Assembly: GCA_937928595.1 (NCBI GenBank)
Contig: CALGJV010000011.1
Span: 62,001-126,000 of the forward strand
DNA: 64,000 nucleotides
Direction of reading: 5' to 3'
Origin: an uncultured Phycisphaerae bacterium
GTDB taxonomy: Bacteria; Planctomycetota; Phycisphaerae; UBA1845; Fen-1342
This document shows positions 27,928 to 42,800 of this stretch, in pieces. Within the stretch, counting starts at the first letter, position 1. Each line of letters opens with the position of its first letter. A program made the position numbers and the translations under genes. Under the pieces are notes generated by a model, which was given only the letters and a program-made list of their open reading frames with translations, made no database searches and was not told the origin of the DNA.

Positions 27928-28041
27928 GCACTTTATGGGCGCGGCGCTCTGCGCGCGGCTGCGGCCGCCCGCGATATGCTTCCAGATGGCGGGCCCGACA
28001 GCGCTGGAATGGTACCCGTGACGACCTTTCGCGAGATTTCC

Positions 28042-30405
28042 ATGCGACTGCGCGCGTTACTTTGCGGCGGCCTCGTGCTGGGGCTCGGCCTGGCCGCGTA
28101 TGCGTCCGGCCCCGACAACGACGTCGAGTGGAACGGTCTGAGCCACGTGGACTGGGCGGACCGGACGCCGCTCTGCCCGATCGCGGGCGAGAGCTTCACG
28201 GTGGCGGTGCAATGCTACCGCTACGATCTCACCGGCGTGCGCGTGTACCTGACCGTGGGCGGCGCGCCGCAGTGGCTGGAAGGCGTCTGGGTCGCCAACC
28301 GCGGTCCGTACGACGTGTGGCAGGCGACGATCCCGGCTACGTCGCCGACGGCGCAGCTCAGCTACTACTTCGAGGTCACGGACGGCACGGATATCGATTA
28401 CCTCGGGCCGGACGGCCCGTCGGACGGCCCGCCCGCCGCGGGCTGGTCGCTGAACTTCGCGACGCTGAGCCACGCGCCGCTCGGCGCGACGCTGACCAGC
28501 GACGGCGGGGCCGTGTTCAAGGTCTGGGCCCCCGGCGCGACGACCGCCGGCGTCGCGGGCCAGTTCAACGGCTGGAGCACCACGTCGCTGCCCATGAGCC
28601 CGAGCGGCGGGTTCTTCACGCGCAAGGTCGCGCCGCCGGTGAGCGCGAACCAGAAATACAAGTTCGTGTTCAACGGCAACAACTGGCGAACCGACGCCCG
28701 CGCCCGCGCGATGGACCCGGGCGACAACGGCAACAGCATTCTCGTGAACCCGCGGGCCTACGCTTGGGGCGACGGGGCTTTCCAGATGCCGGCGTTCGAG
28801 GAGCTCGTGATTTATGAGCTGCACGTCGGCACGTTCTCCGGGCGCAACGACGGGCTGAACCGCGCCGGCCGGTTCCGCGACATCGTGGACCGGCACTTGG
28901 ACCACCTGCTCTACCTCGGCGTGAACGCCGTGCAGCTCATGCCGGTGACCGAGTTCGATTATCACGAGTCGTGGGGCTACAACCCGATCCTGCAATTCGG
29001 CCCCGAGAACGCCTACGGCAGTCCGGCCGACCTGCGGTACACGATCGACCGACTGCACCAGCACGGGATCGCGGTCCTGCTCGACGTCGTCTTCAACCAC
29101 TTCTCGCCCACCGGCAACTTCCTGTGGAACTACGACGGGACGCAGATCTACTTCGACACGCCGGCGGTCGGTACGCCGTGGGGCTCGCAGGCCGACTTCG
29201 ACCGCGGGGAGGTCGCCGACTACTTCGTCGATGCGACGCTGCTGTGGCTGGAGGAGTACCGCGTCGACGGTTTCCGCATGGACGCCACGCGCTACATGCG
29301 CGACAACGACATCTTCCCCGGCGGGCAGCCGTCCGGCTGGGCGCTGATGCAGCGGATCAACAACGCAATCGACCGCCGCAAGGGGCAGGCGATCTCCATC
29401 GCCGAGGAGCTGCCGAACGAGCCGATGATCACGACGCCCACCGCCTGGGGCGGCGCCGGCTTCGACAGCCAGTGGCACGACCAATGGAACGACGACGTGC
29501 GCCAGGAGGTCTTCGACGCCGCCTACGGTGACCCGGAGATGTGGAAGATCGCCAACGCGATCCACGCGCCGGGCTACCCGAACAAGACGCACCTGGTCCG
29601 CTACGTCGAGGGCCACGACGAGGCCGCCTACGGCCGGCTGGCCGTCGCGATCGACAGCAGCAACCCGTACAGCAAGTGGGCGCAGGGTCGCTCCAAGCTG
29701 GCCCAGGGGCTCACGATCCTCGCGCCGGGAATCCCGATGTTCCTCCAGGGCGGCGAGTGGCTCGAGGACACCCCGTTCGGCAGCGCGGCAGGCAACCGCA
29801 TCGACTGGTCCAAGGCCGTCGCGCGGGCCCCGATCGTGCAGTTCTTCCGCGACGTGATCCACGTCCGCCGCACCAACTGCGGCTTCCGCTCCAACGCAGG
29901 CTGCGAGGTCCATCACGTCGACGACTTCAACAACATCCTCGCGTTTCATCGCTGGTGCGACTCGGGCAACGACCTGGTCGTCGTGGCCAGCCTGCGAAAC
30001 AGCGACATCGGCAACTACCGCGTCGGCTTCCCGCAGGGCGGCGTCTGGTACGAGATCCTCAACAGCCAGGCCCTCGACTACCTCGGCAACGGCTCGGGCA
30101 ACGCCGGGCAGGTGACGGCCGTGGTCGTGCCGTACGACGGGATGCCGTACTCGGCCGCGCTGACGGTGCCGGAGATGGGGCTGCTGGTGTTCCGGCACAA
30201 CGAGCCGCCGCCCCGGCCGGGCGACCTGAACTGCGACGGCGCGGTGAACTTCGATGATATCGACCCGTTCGTGCTGGCCCTGAGCGGGCCGGAGGGCTAC
30301 GGCGCGGCGTACCCGCAGTGCCGCTGGCTCAACGCCGACTGCAACGGCGACGGCGTTGTGAGTTTCGACGACATCGACGCGTTCGTGGCGCTGATCGGAA
30401 GTTGA
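28042..30405 (+). CDS. Secreted GH13 alpha-glucan-active enzyme (branching-enzyme-like) with dockerin-like tail
   Basis: 787 residues from ATG 28042; in-frame ATGs at 28009 and 27976 are alternatives. A signal peptide ends near AAYASG. An N-terminal beta domain (about 25-140) is followed by a CBM48-like module (AVFKVWAPGATTAG, VAGQFNGWS), then the GH13 barrel starting at VIYELHVGTFSG. The four GH13 regions are intact: DVVFNHF, GFRMDATRY (nucleophile D414), ISIAEELP (acid/base E455) and VEGHDEAA (D526). The order resembles GlgB/TreZ-type enzymes, but export and the C-terminal GDLNCDG...NFDDID pair point to extracellular use on starch or glycogen. Branching versus hydrolysis cannot be decided from sequence. 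Confidence 0.88.
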   Translation: MRLRALLCGGLVLGLGLAAYASGPDNDVEWNGLSHVDWADRTPLCPIAGESFTVAVQCYRYDLTGVRVYLTVGGAPQWLEGVWVANRGPYDVWQATIPATSPTAQLSYYFEVTDGTDIDYLGPDGPSDGPPAAGWSLNFATLSHAPLGATLTSDGGAVFKVWAPGATTAGVAGQFNGWSTTSLPMSPSGGFFTRKVAPPVSANQKYKFVFNGNNWRTDARARAMDPGDNGNSILVNPRAYAWGDGAFQMPAFEELVIYELHVGTFSGRNDGLNRAGRFRDIVDRHLDHLLYLGVNAVQLMPVTEFDYHESWGYNPILQFGPENAYGSPADLRYTIDRLHQHGIAVLLDVVFNHFSPTGNFLWNYDGTQIYFDTPAVGTPWGSQADFDRGEVADYFVDATLLWLEEYRVDGFRMDATRYMRDNDIFPGGQPSGWALMQRINNAIDRRKGQAISIAEELPNEPMITTPTAWGGAGFDSQWHDQWNDDVRQEVFDAAYGDPEMWKIANAIHAPGYPNKTHLVRYVEGHDEAAYGRLAVAIDSSNPYSKWAQGRSKLAQGLTILAPGIPMFLQGGEWLEDTPFGSAAGNRIDWSKAVARAPIVQFFRDVIHVRRTNCGFRSNAGCEVHHVDDFNNILAFHRWCDSGNDLVVVASLRNSDIGNYRVGFPQGGVWYEILNSQALDYLGNGSGNAGQVTAVVVPYDGMPYSAALTVPEMGLLVFRHNEPPPRPGDLNCDGAVNFDDIDPFVLALSGPEGYGAAYPQCRWLNADCNGDGVVSFDDIDAFVALIGS

Positions 30406-32184: not shown

Positions 32185-33153
32185 TCACAGGTACTGGGCC
32201 GCGAAGCGCAAACGCTCGATGAGCTGGTACGAGCCGCCGCCCTCATGGTTGTTGTATTCGTACACCCGGATCGCCTTCGGCGCGGTGATCCGGTTGTACG
32301 CCGCGTAAACCGTGCTGGGCGGGCACGTCTGGTCCATGAGTGCCACCGAAAAGAGCGTTCTGGCCCGCACGCGCGGCGCAAAGTGGACGCCATCGAAGTA
32401 GGCGAGCGTGCGGAACACGTCGTCGACCCGCGCGCGGTGGCACGCCAGGTACCGCGTGAGTTCTACATACGGCAGCGTGTCCGCCAGCTCCAGCGCGCGG
32501 CGGTAATGGCAAAGGAACGGCACGTCCGCCGCCAGCAGCCGTACGCGGTCCGCGGCCAGCGCGGCCGTCGCCAGCGCGATCCCGCCGCCCTGGCTGCCGC
32601 CCATCACGCCGAGGCGGGCCGGATCGACGCGGGGGTGGGCCGCAGCCGCCGCCAGGGCCCGCACGGCGTCGGTGAAGACGCGGCGGTAGTAGTAACTTTC
32701 GGGCGACTCGATCCCGCGGGTCATGAAGCCGGGGTGCTGTGGGCCGCCGCCGAACGGGTCCGGCGTGTCCCCGGGTGACCACGTCGCGCCCTGGCCGCGG
32801 GTGTCCATCACGAAATGCGCGAACCCGGCGGCCGCGGGCGCGAGGTGGTCCACGGGCAAGCCGCGCCCGCCGCCGTAGCCCACGTACGAAACGAGGCAGG
32901 GCCGGCGGCCGGCGGCGCCGGCCGGCAGGATGAGCCACGCCCGGATCGGATCACCGCCCCAACCGCGGTAGGTCACGTCGCAGACATCGACCCCGCGGTA
33001 GATCGGATCGGCCACGGCATCGAAACGGGCGTCCAGCGGATTCGCAGCCGCCTCGGCCAGCGTGCGCTGCCAGAACGCGTCGAAGTCGGAGGGCTCGGCG
33101 ACGTCCGGATGATAGCTTTCGAGCTGGGGACGCGGGTAGTCGAACAGCGGCAT
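32185..33153 (-). CDS. CE7 acetyl esterase (acetylxylan/cephalosporin-C deacetylase-like)
   Basis: 322-residue alpha/beta-hydrolase without a signal peptide. The family start MPLFDYPRPQLESY matches CE7. The nucleophile is in GVMGGSQGGG, the acid in LMDQTCPPST, and the catalytic His in YNNHEGGG. DTRGQG supplies the oxyanion region. CE7 enzymes remove acetyl groups from xylo-oligosaccharides and small esters in the cytoplasm, which suggests uptake of acetylated plant oligosaccharides. Confidence 0.92.
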   Translation of the reverse strand: MPLFDYPRPQLESYHPDVAEPSDFDAFWQRTLAEAAANPLDARFDAVADPIYRGVDVCDVTYRGWGGDPIRAWLILPAGAAGRRPCLVSYVGYGGGRGLPVDHLAPAAAGFAHFVMDTRGQGATWSPGDTPDPFGGGPQHPGFMTRGIESPESYYYRRVFTDAVRALAAAAAHPRVDPARLGVMGGSQGGGIALATAALAADRVRLLAADVPFLCHYRRALELADTLPYVELTRYLACHRARVDDVFRTLAYFDGVHFAPRVRARTLFSVALMDQTCPPSTVYAAYNRITAPKAIRVYEYNNHEGGGSYQLIERLRFAAQYL

Positions 33154-33252: not shown

Positions 33253-36099
33253 CTATTCGGGCGGCAGCAGCACGTACGCGACCCCGCCGGTCGCCTTCCA
33301 CCAGGCCTCTTCGAGTCCTGCGCGCGGATACCACACGCAGCCCTTTTCCGGCGTCGAGGCGGCCGGATCGTTGACTTCCACGTTGCCCGCCGCGTCGAAG
33401 CCGGTCAGCACGATCAGGTGCCCGTCGGTGGCCGGGTACGGGGAGTTCAGCAGGATCCCGGGCTGGGCGAACCGGATCGAGAGGATCAGCGGGCGTCCGT
33501 CGGCGATGGAGCGCTCCACGTCGGCCCAGTTGGTGAAGCGGGCGAGGTACCCCGGCACGCCGAAGCTGTACGCGGCCTGCACGTTGCGCGGCCAGTTCCC
33601 GTAGATACCGTGGTGCGGGTCCAGGCAAGCGCGGGCGACCTCGAGGGTGTCGCGATCGACGCCGTAGTACGCCATGACCATCGCGACGGACGTCGGGCTA
33701 CAGATCTTCCCGGAGAGGTCGGGCTGATCGGTCTTCTGCGTGCGGAACGGGACCGGCAGGCGGCGCTGCCAGGCGGGCGGCTGGAGCGGCCGGGCCGCCG
33801 CCGGCGCGTCAGCCGGGCCGCCGGTTTTCAGGTCGCTCAGACACAGCGTGACGCGGCGCAGGTGCAGCACGCCGGGCGCGCCGGCGGTTGTCGCCCGCAC
33901 CCGATATTGCACGCGATCGAACAGCGTGTCGGAGCGGAAGTAGTCGATGTCCACACGGCCGCGCTCGAAACGCACGACGCGCTCGCCCGCCGGCGGCGTG
34001 CCCCAGTCGCCCATGTACAGCCAGGGCGACCAGGCGTTTTCGCTGGAGCGGCCCACGCGGATTTCCAGCGTGAAGCCCGCGTCCGGCGGCGTTCCGATGT
34101 TCCACGACGCCAGCACCTCGTGGAACGCGATGCCCGGCGCCAGGATGGGCGACTCGTACTCCGTGACGCCCGCGGGACCGACCGGCAGGAGCGCCCCGCG
34201 GCCGTGCTCCGCCGGCGTCAGCCCCGGAAAGTCCGCCGCGGCTTCGTGCCGGATCAGGCGGTGGCGGTAGGCGGCGGGGGGAATGGCACCGCAGAGCAGG
34301 TCGTCCACCGCGGCGGCCATCTGCTCGAGGTACTCCTCGCCGCGGGGGTGGTGCGTCATGCCGGCGAGGAGGTAGACGCGCTCGCCGTGCTGCACGCGGG
34401 CGGTGTCGAGGTGCCAGTCCTCCCACGTACCGCTCTTGCGCAGCAGCGTCGCGCCGCGCGGCGCCAGCGCCCGCACGAAACTCGTGTCGTGGTGTGCGAG
34501 CTGCGGCGCGGCGAAGATCTCCTTCATCTTCAGGCTGGCGGGGCCGCTGACGAGCCGGCCCTGCTCGAGCATGAGGTAGTAGCGCAGACACTGCCGCACG
34601 GTCGCCGCGTGCGAGTGGTCGTGCAGCGGATCGCCGGTGCGGGGCGCGTCAATCCCGTAGTGCTTGCCGCACCACAGCCCGCCGCCGCGGGCCTGGTCGT
34701 AGAGCTTGTAGCGCGACCCGGTGAGGAGCGCCTGAATCTTGTCCAGACCGACGAGCCGGCTGTACTTGGCCGCCAGCTCGTTGTCGGAGTGCTTGATCAT
34801 GAGCTCGAGCTCGCGCTGCGTCGGCGGGTCGAGCGCGCGGGCGGCCTCCGGGTGCGTCTCGAAGTAGGCCAGCAGAATCGCGATCTTCGGCACGCTCGCG
34901 CCGTAGAACTCCTCGTCCGGCCGGACGGCCGCGAAGCGCCGCGTGGCAAGGTCCAGCACGCCGAACGCGCGGTCGGCGTCGGGAATCCCGAGGTCGTCGC
35001 CCAGCCGGCGGTCCGCCAGCTCGAGCTCGCGCTGCAGTTCGGCGTCGACGGGCGTGTCCGGTGTCAGGCGGTACGCTTGCAGGTTCATCGCGGTAACCCA
35101 GTCCTGGGTGTGCAGCGGACGGATGGCATCGCCGCCCAGCGGAGACGCCCGCACGGCAGCGGTGAGCGCGGCCTCGCTGACGTCCGTGGCGGCCCCGGGC
35201 GCGGCGGGCGCGGCGGCCAGCCGCGCCTCGGCGTCCGGCCGCAGCCGCAGGAACTTGACACCGACGCAGCGCCGGTCGCCGGCCAGGTACTCCAGCAGCG
35301 GCTGTTCGCGGACGGCCGGCTCGGCCGAGTGCAGGAAGTTCACCGTGCCGTCCGACGCGTGGGTGACGAGGCCGGTGTGGCCGACCCACTGCGACTCGGA
35401 CGAGCCGCGGACGATGTTGACCAGGTCGGCGTCGCGCAGCTCGGCGAGGATGTCGGGCACGCGCTCCTTCGGGATGTAGTGGTCGGCCAGCGTCTCGTCG
35501 GGGATGTCCTGCCCGAGGCCGAACTTCGCCAGGAAGGCCGCCCGCCGGATCACCGCGTGCAGCGGCACGGCGACCCGGCCGCCGCCGAGCTGCGTCGTCA
35601 GGTCCTCGAACAGGAACGCGTTGCTGCGATTCCAGTCCGCCTCGGTGTAGTGGTTGCGCGTCACCATGCCCACGACGCCGTCGCGGTAGCGGAGCCGCTG
35701 GAGAACGCGGAGGTACGACCACCAGTCGCTCGCCAGCGCGGCGGCGTAGGTGTGCTCGCAGAACGTCACGCAGTCGCTCCGCGCCAGGCAATAGAGCGGG
35801 TCCGCGTCGTAGATCTCGTACGGGTATTCGCCGAGCAGGTAGATCTCGTACGGCTGGCCGAGATTCTGCCGCGCGAGCCGCACCACGCGCTGCGCCGGGT
35901 CCGGCGTCTGCGCCCGAACGTACGGCAGGTACTGCCCGAGTTCGGCTTCGCTGAACGTGTACAGCGGCCGGTCGGCCAGCGCGGCGGCCTCCGGCGGTGC
36001 GGCGGGGGGCGGCACCGGCGGCGGCGTGCGGCAGTTCCACAGGCCGGTCGCGGCGGCCAGCAGGGCCGCGGCGCCGGCGACGCGTTGCAGTTTCGACAT
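33253..36099 (-). CDS. Three-domain envelope protein: DUF1460 amidase-like, class A beta-lactamase-like, C39 peptidase-like
   Basis: 948 residues from ATG 36099. A signal/lipobox-like start (ALLAAATGLWNC) suggests export and lipid anchoring at C23. Domain 1 (about 45-290) is DUF1460, an NlpC/P60-like amidase fold, with C110 in ARSDCVTFC and H241 in VGHTGLV. Domain 2 (about 340-610) has serine beta-lactamase/transpeptidase motifs: S402-V-P-K405, S438-D-N440 and K555-S-G557. A beta-sandwich linker (about 645-755) follows. Domain 3 (about 780-948) is a C39-like peptidase with C800 in GKICSPTSVAM, H894 in DGHLIVLTG and N910-D911. It probably remodels peptidoglycan peptides. I know of no characterised protein with all three catalytic sites. 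Confidence 0.88.
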   Translation of the reverse strand: MSKLQRVAGAAALLAAATGLWNCRTPPPVPPPAAPPEAAALADRPLYTFSEAELGQYLPYVRAQTPDPAQRVVRLARQNLGQPYEIYLLGEYPYEIYDADPLYCLARSDCVTFCEHTYAAALASDWWSYLRVLQRLRYRDGVVGMVTRNHYTEADWNRSNAFLFEDLTTQLGGGRVAVPLHAVIRRAAFLAKFGLGQDIPDETLADHYIPKERVPDILAELRDADLVNIVRGSSESQWVGHTGLVTHASDGTVNFLHSAEPAVREQPLLEYLAGDRRCVGVKFLRLRPDAEARLAAAPAAPGAATDVSEAALTAAVRASPLGGDAIRPLHTQDWVTAMNLQAYRLTPDTPVDAELQRELELADRRLGDDLGIPDADRAFGVLDLATRRFAAVRPDEEFYGASVPKIAILLAYFETHPEAARALDPPTQRELELMIKHSDNELAAKYSRLVGLDKIQALLTGSRYKLYDQARGGGLWCGKHYGIDAPRTGDPLHDHSHAATVRQCLRYYLMLEQGRLVSGPASLKMKEIFAAPQLAHHDTSFVRALAPRGATLLRKSGTWEDWHLDTARVQHGERVYLLAGMTHHPRGEEYLEQMAAAVDDLLCGAIPPAAYRHRLIRHEAAADFPGLTPAEHGRGALLPVGPAGVTEYESPILAPGIAFHEVLASWNIGTPPDAGFTLEIRVGRSSENAWSPWLYMGDWGTPPAGERVVRFERGRVDIDYFRSDTLFDRVQYRVRATTAGAPGVLHLRRVTLCLSDLKTGGPADAPAAARPLQPPAWQRRLPVPFRTQKTDQPDLSGKICSPTSVAMVMAYYGVDRDTLEVARACLDPHHGIYGNWPRNVQAAYSFGVPGYLARFTNWADVERSIADGRPLILSIRFAQPGILLNSPYPATDGHLIVLTGFDAAGNVEVNDPAASTPEKGCVWYPRAGLEEAWWKATGGVAYVLLPPE

Positions 36100-41408: not shown

Positions 41409-41437
41409 TTGATTTGCTTGCCCCGCCGTGCAACAAT
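41409..41437 (+). promoter_or_regulatory. Promoter of the Cys-repeat secreted protein
   Basis: TTGATT (41409-41414), a 17-bp spacer and AACAAT (41432-41437), 34 bp before the ATG. Confidence 0.5.
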
Positions 41438-41471
41438 GGAAACGAACAGGCCGTTTTTATGGAGATGGGCT

Positions 41472-42800
41472 ATGAAGCGAGCGTGTGCGCGGGCGCTTGT
41501 TGCGCAAGCTGTTTCTTCGTTATCCCTTATGATCGCGACCGCTTCCGCGGCGGAGGTCATCGTCAAGAACGATTCGTTCGTCGACGGCGGTGCGGTCAAC
41601 GTGCAGGCGGGCTTTGTTGATCGCGAGTTGGCCGCCGCGTGGCTCACCTCGCCGTGCAACGGCACCATCGTCGGCATCCAGGTGTTCTGGGGCGCGATGG
41701 GCGACGGGCTGCCCTCGATTGAGGACAGCATCACGATCTACCGCGCGGGGACGTTCCCGAACCCCGACACGAGCTTTGGCGGTACGCTGGCGGTGCTCGA
41801 GGCCCCGGCGCTGACGCCGGGATTCATGAACGAGTATCGCTACCTGGACGAGAACAATACCGTGCCGATCAACGTGCCGGTGACGGCGGGGCAGACGTTC
41901 GTCGTTGCGTTCAAGTTCTTCAACCCGCCGGCCGAGCGGGGCGGCAGCATCTGCACGGACGTGAACGGCTGCCAGAGTGGCAAGAACGGGCTGTACGCCA
42001 TTCCGCCGGGGTTGTGGTTCAACGCGTGTGCCCTGGGCGTGTCGGGCGACTTCGTGATCCGGGCGATCGTTGATTGTCAGGCCGCGACCGGAGCCTGCTG
42101 CAAGCCGGACGGGACCTGCGCGACGTTGACCGCGGCCCAATGCAGCCAGATCGGCGGCACCTATCAGGGCGACAACGTGAGCTGCGGCTCGGTTAGTTGC
42201 CCGCAGCCGACCGGCGCCTGTTGCTTCGCGGCGACGCAGGGGTGTCTGAACCTGACCCAGGCGCAGTGCCAGACCGCGGGCGGCACATGGGCCGGTGCGG
42301 GGACGAGCTGCGCCACGTACGTGTGCTTCCCGAAAGGTGCGTGCTGCCTGCCGAACGGAACGTGCATTGACAACGTGAGCCCGGAGCAGTGCGCGGCCCA
42401 GGGCGGCACGTTCAAGGGCAACGGCACGACGTGCGGCACGGTCTCGTGTCCGCCGCCGACCGGCGCGTGCTGCTTCGGCACCGGCGGGTGTCTGTTGCTC
42501 GTGCAGGCCGACTGCCACATCGCGGGCGGCTCCTGGAAGGGGGCCGGGACGAACTGCGCCGACGGCAATCAGAACGGCGCGCCCGACGCGTGCGAGTCCA
42601 ACGTACGGCCGGGCGACCTGAACTGCGACGGCGTCGTCAACTTCGACGACATCGACCCGTTCGTCGTGGCGCTGTCAGGGCAGGCCGCGTACGAGGCGGC
42701 GTATCCCGGGTGCCGGTGGCTGAACGCCGACTGCAACAACGACGGCCAGGTGAACTTCGACGACATCGACGCGTTTGTGAGCGTGCTCGCCGGCGGGTGA
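41472..42800 (+). CDS. Secreted protein with four GACC Cys repeats and dockerin-like tail
   Basis: 442 residues from ATG 41472 (GGAGATGGGCT before it). A signal peptide ends at ATASAAEV. Residues about 25-200 form a beta domain with VDRELAAAWLTSPCNGTIVGI and VFWGAMGDGLPSIEDSI. Residues about 206-375 are four six-Cys GACC repeats like those of the gene at 24879. The C-terminus is the dockerin-like pair (GDLNCDGVVNFDDIDPFVVA and DCNNDGQVNFDDIDAFVS). No catalytic motif. Probably a disulfide-rich surface or secreted binding protein. Confidence 0.8.
   Translation: MKRACARALVAQAVSSLSLMIATASAAEVIVKNDSFVDGGAVNVQAGFVDRELAAAWLTSPCNGTIVGIQVFWGAMGDGLPSIEDSITIYRAGTFPNPDTSFGGTLAVLEAPALTPGFMNEYRYLDENNTVPINVPVTAGQTFVVAFKFFNPPAERGGSICTDVNGCQSGKNGLYAIPPGLWFNACALGVSGDFVIRAIVDCQAATGACCKPDGTCATLTAAQCSQIGGTYQGDNVSCGSVSCPQPTGACCFAATQGCLNLTQAQCQTAGGTWAGAGTSCATYVCFPKGACCLPNGTCIDNVSPEQCAAQGGTFKGNGTTCGTVSCPPPTGACCFGTGGCLLLVQADCHIAGGSWKGAGTNCADGNQNGAPDACESNVRPGDLNCDGVVNFDDIDPFVVALSGQAAYEAAYPGCRWLNADCNNDGQVNFDDIDAFVSVLAGG
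42088..42594 (+). repeat. Four in-frame six-Cys GACC repeats (second gene)
   Basis: Four protein repeats of about 40-44 residues: each opens with GACC, then C, C, GG-x-[YWF]-x-G, C, C. The spacing is the same as in the repeats at 25764-26243. Confidence 0.8.

What the first reader, a model, noticed from the sequence alone, without database searches (positions are those of the whole stretch)
33253..36099. One protein with amidase-like, beta-lactamase-like and C39-like active sites
All catalytic residues of three unrelated families appear intact in one exported chain: C110/H241, S402-K405/SDN/KSG, and C800/H894/N910. This could be a single-chain peptidoglycan peptide processor, or a beta-lactamase paired with proteases for wall-fragment recycling. 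I know of no described example.
Basis: partly seen in the sequence, partly recalled or inferred. Interest (0 to 1): 0.65.

Follow-up and report, generated by a model that had tools for sequence, protein, structure and literature searches.

The report
Three-enzyme cell-wall peptide processor
One exported planctomycete protein strings together three enzymes that most likely take apart peptidoglycan (cell-wall) fragments, and relatives with the same parts reshuffled, including four-enzyme chains that also end in a D-Ala-D-Ala dipeptidase, point to wall-fragment salvage rather than antibiotic resistance.

Summary
The 948-residue chain (33253-36099, minus strand) has Pfam-supported AmiA-like (DUF1460), beta-lactamase-like and C39-like domains, plus an unnoticed beta-sandwich. 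It is no assembly artefact: the same A-B-S-C order occurs in nine other genomes, two of them single-contig chromosomes. Catalytic residues are invariant across 30-61 relatives, and each module is under purifying selection. The modules also occur alone and reshuffled (A-B, B-SC, A-SC); seven relatives carry an added M15 D-Ala-D-Ala dipeptidase, giving a four-enzyme chain in two genomes. Several relatives neighbour NagB and NagC-like genes; stand-alone A genes in Opitutae sit beside NagB, a TonB receptor, AnmK and MurQ. The 'beta-lactamase' part folds like class A enzymes, but its best PDB sequence match is PBP-A, a DD-peptidase, and the Glu166 position appears to be Leu/Val/Ile in all 30 members. 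Best reading: an exported (in most relatives lipoprotein) multi-enzyme that strips and trims stem peptides from peptidoglycan fragments. The bond cut by the C39-like part and the substrate's origin remain open. It is a new architecture of known families with one new subfamily.

The parts
33253..36099 (-). Whole coding sequence, 948 aa + stop: export signal, A, B, S, C
   Evidence: orthologues
36031..36099 (-). N-terminal signal, residues 1-23, ending LWNC (lipobox-like; canonical lipobox in most relatives)
   Evidence: sequence
35200..35979 (-). Module A, residues 41-300: DUF1460/AmiA-like amidase, triad C110-H241-H257
34264..35079 (-). Module B, residues 341-612: class A beta-lactamase-fold serine peptidase, S402xxK405, S438DN440, K555SG; L492 at the probable Glu166 position
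33775..34179 (-). Module S, residues 641-775: beta-sandwich with no Pfam family, found with C in nearly all relatives
33256..33774 (-). Module C, residues 776-948: C39-like cysteine peptidase, C800, H894, N910/D911
32185..33153 (-). Downstream AXE1-family esterase, same strand; next gene also in three relatives (L038, L040, L042); possible co-transcribed partner

Best explanation
An exported multi-enzyme (anchored as a lipoprotein in most relatives) that dismantles peptidoglycan fragments. Module A cuts the MurNAc-L-Ala amide and frees the stem peptide from the sugar. Module B, a PBP-A-like serine DD-peptidase, removes terminal D-Ala and/or opens D-Ala-mDAP cross-links. Module C, a papain-like cysteine peptidase, cuts the stem peptide further at an unidentified bond. 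The sugar goes to MurQ/NagB-type catabolism and the peptides are taken up. In some relatives a fused VanX-like enzyme (X) also hydrolyses D-Ala-D-Ala. Shown here: families, conserved catalytic residues, fusion and shuffling, purifying selection, neighbours in relatives. Inferred: the bonds cut, the order of steps, and salvage or nutrition as the purpose.
For: Pfam hits for A, B and C. Same A-B-S-C chain in ten genomes in all, two of them single-contig records CP070691.1 and CP054190.1. Invariant catalytic residues. dN/dS 0.09-0.30 per module in the closest pair. Modules recombine: A-B, B-SC, A-SC-X, A-B-X, A-B-SC-X. X matches D-alanyl-D-alanine dipeptidase above cut-off (PF01427 3e-36; NF007557 185.5 bits vs 176). 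NagB and/or NagC-like ROK genes within three genes of several relatives, with only 0-2 NagB matches per genome. Stand-alone A in Opitutae beside NagB, TonB receptor, M20 peptidase, AnmK, MurQ and an AmpG-like transporter. MurQ and an S66 carboxypeptidase family member are in the window's genome. B resembles PBP-A by fold and by its best sequence hit; PBP-A is a DD-carboxypeptidase/endopeptidase (PMC11189452). DUF1460 is an amidase with a Cys-His-His triad (PMC10318531).
Against: No biochemical data. AnmK and M15 are absent from the window's genome, and AnmK does not track the fusion (3 of 8 fused genomes), so anhydro-muropeptide use there is unsupported. In the window itself the neighbours are not wall genes, and its NagB lies on another contig. 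Most architecture changes could be losses from one ancestral chain, so the fusions need not be independent. C39_2 proteins include general peptidases.
Confidence: 0.7

Rival explanations
1. A wall-remodelling enzyme acting on the cell's own sacculus (growth, division) rather than on soluble fragments for salvage or nutrition.
For: DD-endopeptidase and amidase chemistries serve remodelling too; probable membrane anchoring in most relatives; AnmK absent from many fused genomes.
Against: Sporadic distribution: 36 of 218 genomes of the class have any match to the modules, and B is found in only 2 of 292 phylum-sampled genomes, one of them this one. Amino-sugar catabolic neighbours in relatives. 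X acts on free D-Ala-D-Ala in the known family. DUF1460 enzymes are described as highly specific (title of ref. 43 in PMC10318531).
Confidence: 0.2
2. Beta-lactam resistance protein: B is a true beta-lactamase and the cysteine enzymes are incidental.
For: Class A fold with SxxK, SDN, KSG.
Against: No Glu at the position aligned with PBP-A Leu158/Glu166 (Leu/Val/Ile 30/30); closest comparators include PBP-A and LRA-5, which lack Glu166; B is consistently found with wall-peptide enzymes.
Confidence: 0.05
3. A general extracellular peptide/protein scavenger; the C39 part and its beta-sandwich cut ordinary proteins and the fusion only co-exports unrelated hydrolases.
For: S-C occurs alone widely (Deinococcus, Nonomuraea, Haladaptatus) and once fused to an S9 peptidase (L056). 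An archaeal S-C cannot be assumed to act on peptidoglycan.
Against: In this group S-C is fused to A, B and X, all of peptidoglycan-acting or penicillin-recognising families.
Confidence: 0.15
4. Assembly-created fusion of neighbouring genes.
For: The window's genome is a 46-contig assembly.
Against: Same fused order at 52-63% identity in other genera, including single-contig chromosomes.
Confidence: 0.01

Closest known systems
DUF1460/AmiA-like amidases (PF07313; PDB 2im9, 2p1g, 4h4j/4q5k)
   Same: Domain above threshold, C-H-H triad, whole-domain sequence match
   Different: Here fused to two or three further enzymes; the solved relatives are chains of 240-333 residues, too short for the other modules
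PBP-A of Thermosynechococcus (PDB 2j7v), class A-fold DD-peptidase
   Same: Fold (Z about 25), SxxK/SDN/KxG, hydrophobic residue at the probable Glu166 position
   Different: Only ~20% identity; own loop signature W-x-G-K-x-Y; fused; activity unknown
Class A beta-lactamases
   Same: Fold and SxxK, SDN, KSG
   Different: Probable lack of Glu166; company of wall-peptide enzymes
C39-like peptidases with an N-terminal beta-sandwich (e.g. Deinococcus 'peptidase C39 family protein')
   Same: The S-C pair is homologous
   Different: No match to A or B in those records
Bifunctional wall hydrolases such as CwlT (lysozyme + NlpC/P60; title of ref. B220 in PMC6403190)
   Same: Several wall-cutting activities in one chain
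   Different: CwlT pairs a glycosidase with an endopeptidase; here all parts are amidase or peptidase families and there are three or four

Membership tests
DUF1460/AmiA-like amidase (PF07313) | Profile score above gathering threshold | tested here: met
   86.9 bits vs 27
DUF1460/AmiA-like amidase (PF07313) | Cys-His-His triad | tested here: met
   C110, H241, H257 conserved in all rows with a letter; triad type from PMC10318531
DUF1460/AmiA-like amidase (PF07313) | N-acetylmuramoyl-L-alanine amidase activity | not testable with these tools
   needs enzyme assay
Class A beta-lactamase | Fold and SxxK, SDN, K[TS]G motifs | tested here: met
Class A beta-lactamase | Glu166 in the omega loop | tested here: inconclusive
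   Profile alignment to PBP-A (E 0.037) puts L492 there, Leu/Val/Ile in 30/30; D468 and D490 nearby are nearly invariant, so a structural check is needed
PBP-A-like DD-peptidase | Class A fold without Glu166, DD-peptidase activity | tested here: inconclusive
   Fold and best PDB sequence match agree; activity not testable
Peptidase_C39_2 (PF13529) | Profile score and Cys, His, Asn/Asp catalytic residues | tested here: met
   63.4 bits vs 24; C800, H894, N910, D911 conserved
D-Ala-D-Ala dipeptidase (relatives only) | PF01427/NF007557 score, SxHxxGxAxD and EWWH motifs | tested here: met
   L080, L048 and L053; motifs in 7/7 X modules
D-Ala-D-Ala dipeptidase (window protein or its genome) | A PF01427 domain present | tested here: not met
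   No match in G000
Anhydro-muropeptide recycling pathway in the window's genome | AnmK present | tested here: not met
   No PF03702 match in G000; MurQ present
Bacterial lipoprotein | Canonical lipobox [LVI][ASTVI][GAS]C | tested here: not met
   LWNC in the window protein; canonical in most relatives

The most novel reading that the evidence does not exclude
A peptidoglycan-peptide disassembly line in a single chain: amidase, a new class A-fold DD-peptidase family and a cysteine peptidase, completed in some species by a VanX-type dipeptidase, acting in sequence on one bound fragment with possible substrate channelling.
Probability: 0.3. Interest if true: 0.75.

Novelty: new variant of a known kind. 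Interest (0 to 1): 0.58.

Why it matters
Planctomycetes were long thought to lack peptidoglycan (general knowledge), and how Phycisphaerae obtain or reuse wall fragments is little described: literature searches here found nothing on this architecture. Fused and reshuffled modules give a direct, testable list of partners for a wall-fragment pathway, link a narrow class A-fold subfamily to peptidoglycan metabolism rather than resistance, and offer more comparators (with PBP-A and LRA-5) for the step from DD-peptidase to beta-lactamase.

Tried and rejected
Assembly artefact: rejected. Beta-lactamase function: disfavoured. Co-occurrence with AnmK as support for anhydro-muropeptide recycling: not found. 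Separate VanX gene in the window's genome: not found. NCBIfam scan of the whole protein: nothing informative. Orientation of active sites: full-length model has pTM 0.61 and gives no usable inter-domain confidence; I draw nothing from it. The 2014 DUF1460 paper is not in the library, so its substrate specificity is cited only through its title and PMC10318531. Antisense open frames in this GC-rich DNA produced false neighbour clusters at first and were replaced by codon-scored gene calls. AXE1 esterase as a wall O-acetyl esterase: only a guess. Plasmids carry S-C or A fragments only, never the fusion.

Full report
1. Observation. The minus-strand frame 33253-36099 encodes 948 aa. Pfam gives AmiA-like (DUF1460), Beta-lactamase2 and Peptidase_C39_2 above gathering thresholds, in that order. 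A further beta-sandwich (S, ~641-775) precedes the C39-like part, and the amidase has a third catalytic histidine, H257, which completes the Cys-His-His triad reported for DUF1460 (PMC10318531).

2. It is real and conserved. Seven relatives in other genera carry the same four-module order at 52-63% identity, and a scan of named genomes adds two more (L079, L093), all Phycisphaerae/Planctomycetota records. Two records are single-contig chromosomes (CP070691.1, CP054190.1), which rules out a misassembly. Catalytic residues are invariant: A triad in 60-61 modules, B S/K/S/N/K/G in 30, C C/H/N in 29-30. In the closest pair each module has dN/dS of 0.09-0.30.

3. The modules are mixed and matched. 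In the same order and class I found A-B, B-SC, A-SC-X, A-B-X, single A, single B and S-C genes. X is an M15 D-Ala-D-Ala dipeptidase (NF007557 and PF01427 above cut-off for L080). L080 and L130 carry A-B-SC-X, four enzymes in one chain (1156 and 1203 aa). S-C is also fused to an S9 peptidase (L056) and B-SC to a NAGPA glycosidase domain (L095). On the B tree the architectures need at least 8 changes (5 is the minimum for six classes), but few branches are strongly supported, so repeated loss from one ancestral long chain is as good as repeated fusion. All five stand-alone B genomes also encode S-C, and so do two more.

4. Neighbours. In several relatives with A-B-type genes, NagB (glucosamine-6-phosphate deaminase) and/or a NagC-like ROK protein lies within three genes, although the eleven genomes checked have only 0-2 NagB matches each. 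Stand-alone A genes in Opitutae (Verrucomicrobiota) lie next to a TonB receptor, M20 peptidase and NagB, and in L104 to AnmK and MurQ; L115 has AnmK and an AmpG-like transporter. The TonB receptor was recognised by eye, the others by profile. That is amino-sugar/MurNAc catabolism. In the window itself the partner seen is an AXE1 esterase, the next gene downstream here and in three relatives. The window's genome has MurQ and an S66 carboxypeptidase, but no AnmK and no M15, and its NagB is elsewhere.

5. What module B is. The B model is confident (pLDDT 93, pTM 0.91) and has the class A beta-lactamase fold, with PBP-A and LRA-5 among the closest matches (Z about 25, tied with many class A enzymes). 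A profile of the family finds PBP-A as its only meaningful PDB sequence match (E 0.037, weak). In that alignment our L492 falls on PBP-A Leu158, the Glu166 position, and is Leu/Val/Ile in all 30 members. PBP-A is a DD-carboxypeptidase and DD-endopeptidase (PMC11189452). B is therefore more likely a DD-peptidase than a beta-lactamase. D468 and D490 are nearly invariant in the same loop, so the structure should be checked. B is a narrow family: 2 of 292 genomes sampled across the phylum, one of them the window's own.

6. Mechanism. Most likely a periplasmic or surface enzyme, lipid-anchored in most relatives (the window protein itself has LWNC, not a canonical lipobox). It frees stem peptides from MurNAc (A), trims or de-crosslinks at D-Ala (B), cuts the peptide further (C) and, in some species, splits D-Ala-D-Ala (X). 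The bond cut by C, the order of steps, channelling, and whether the substrate is the cell's own turnover or foreign wall are inferred or unknown. If X acts on free D-Ala-D-Ala as in the known family, something in the chain must release it; an L,D-cleavage by C would do so, but this is speculation.

7. Comparison. Each part belongs to or resembles a known family; the combination was not found in the literature held here nor in plasmids. I rate it a new variant (architecture) of known wall-hydrolase kinds with a new class A-fold subfamily, not a categorically new system.

Noticed in passing
27976-30405 and 41409-42800 (+): Two exported proteins end in near-identical dockerin-like motifs (GDLNCDGxVNFDDIDPFVxALSG); the second also has repeated Cys-rich units (TGACC...).
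   Followed up: no
L056:3157-6273: S9 prolyl oligopeptidase fused to the S-C39 modules in one chain.
   Followed up: partly
L095:4993-7878 (and L094): NAGPA phosphodiester glycosidase domain fused in front of B-S-C39.
   Followed up: partly
L104, L115, L099-L107: Opitutae loci with NagB, AraC-type regulator (by eye), TonB receptor (by eye), DUF1460 amidase, M20 peptidase; AnmK and MurQ in L104, AnmK and AmpG-like in L115: looks like a peptidoglycan-fragment utilisation locus.
   Followed up: partly
L078:1106-3493, L080:1236-3638, L089:1845-4253: About 800-aa divergent NagB-PIG-L-like proteins (NF002557 below cut-off in L078) next to the fused enzymes.
   Followed up: partly
stand-alone B genes L057, L060, L061, L064, L067: SDN changed to SSN, and KSG to KWG in four of the five; possible altered specificity.
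   Followed up: no
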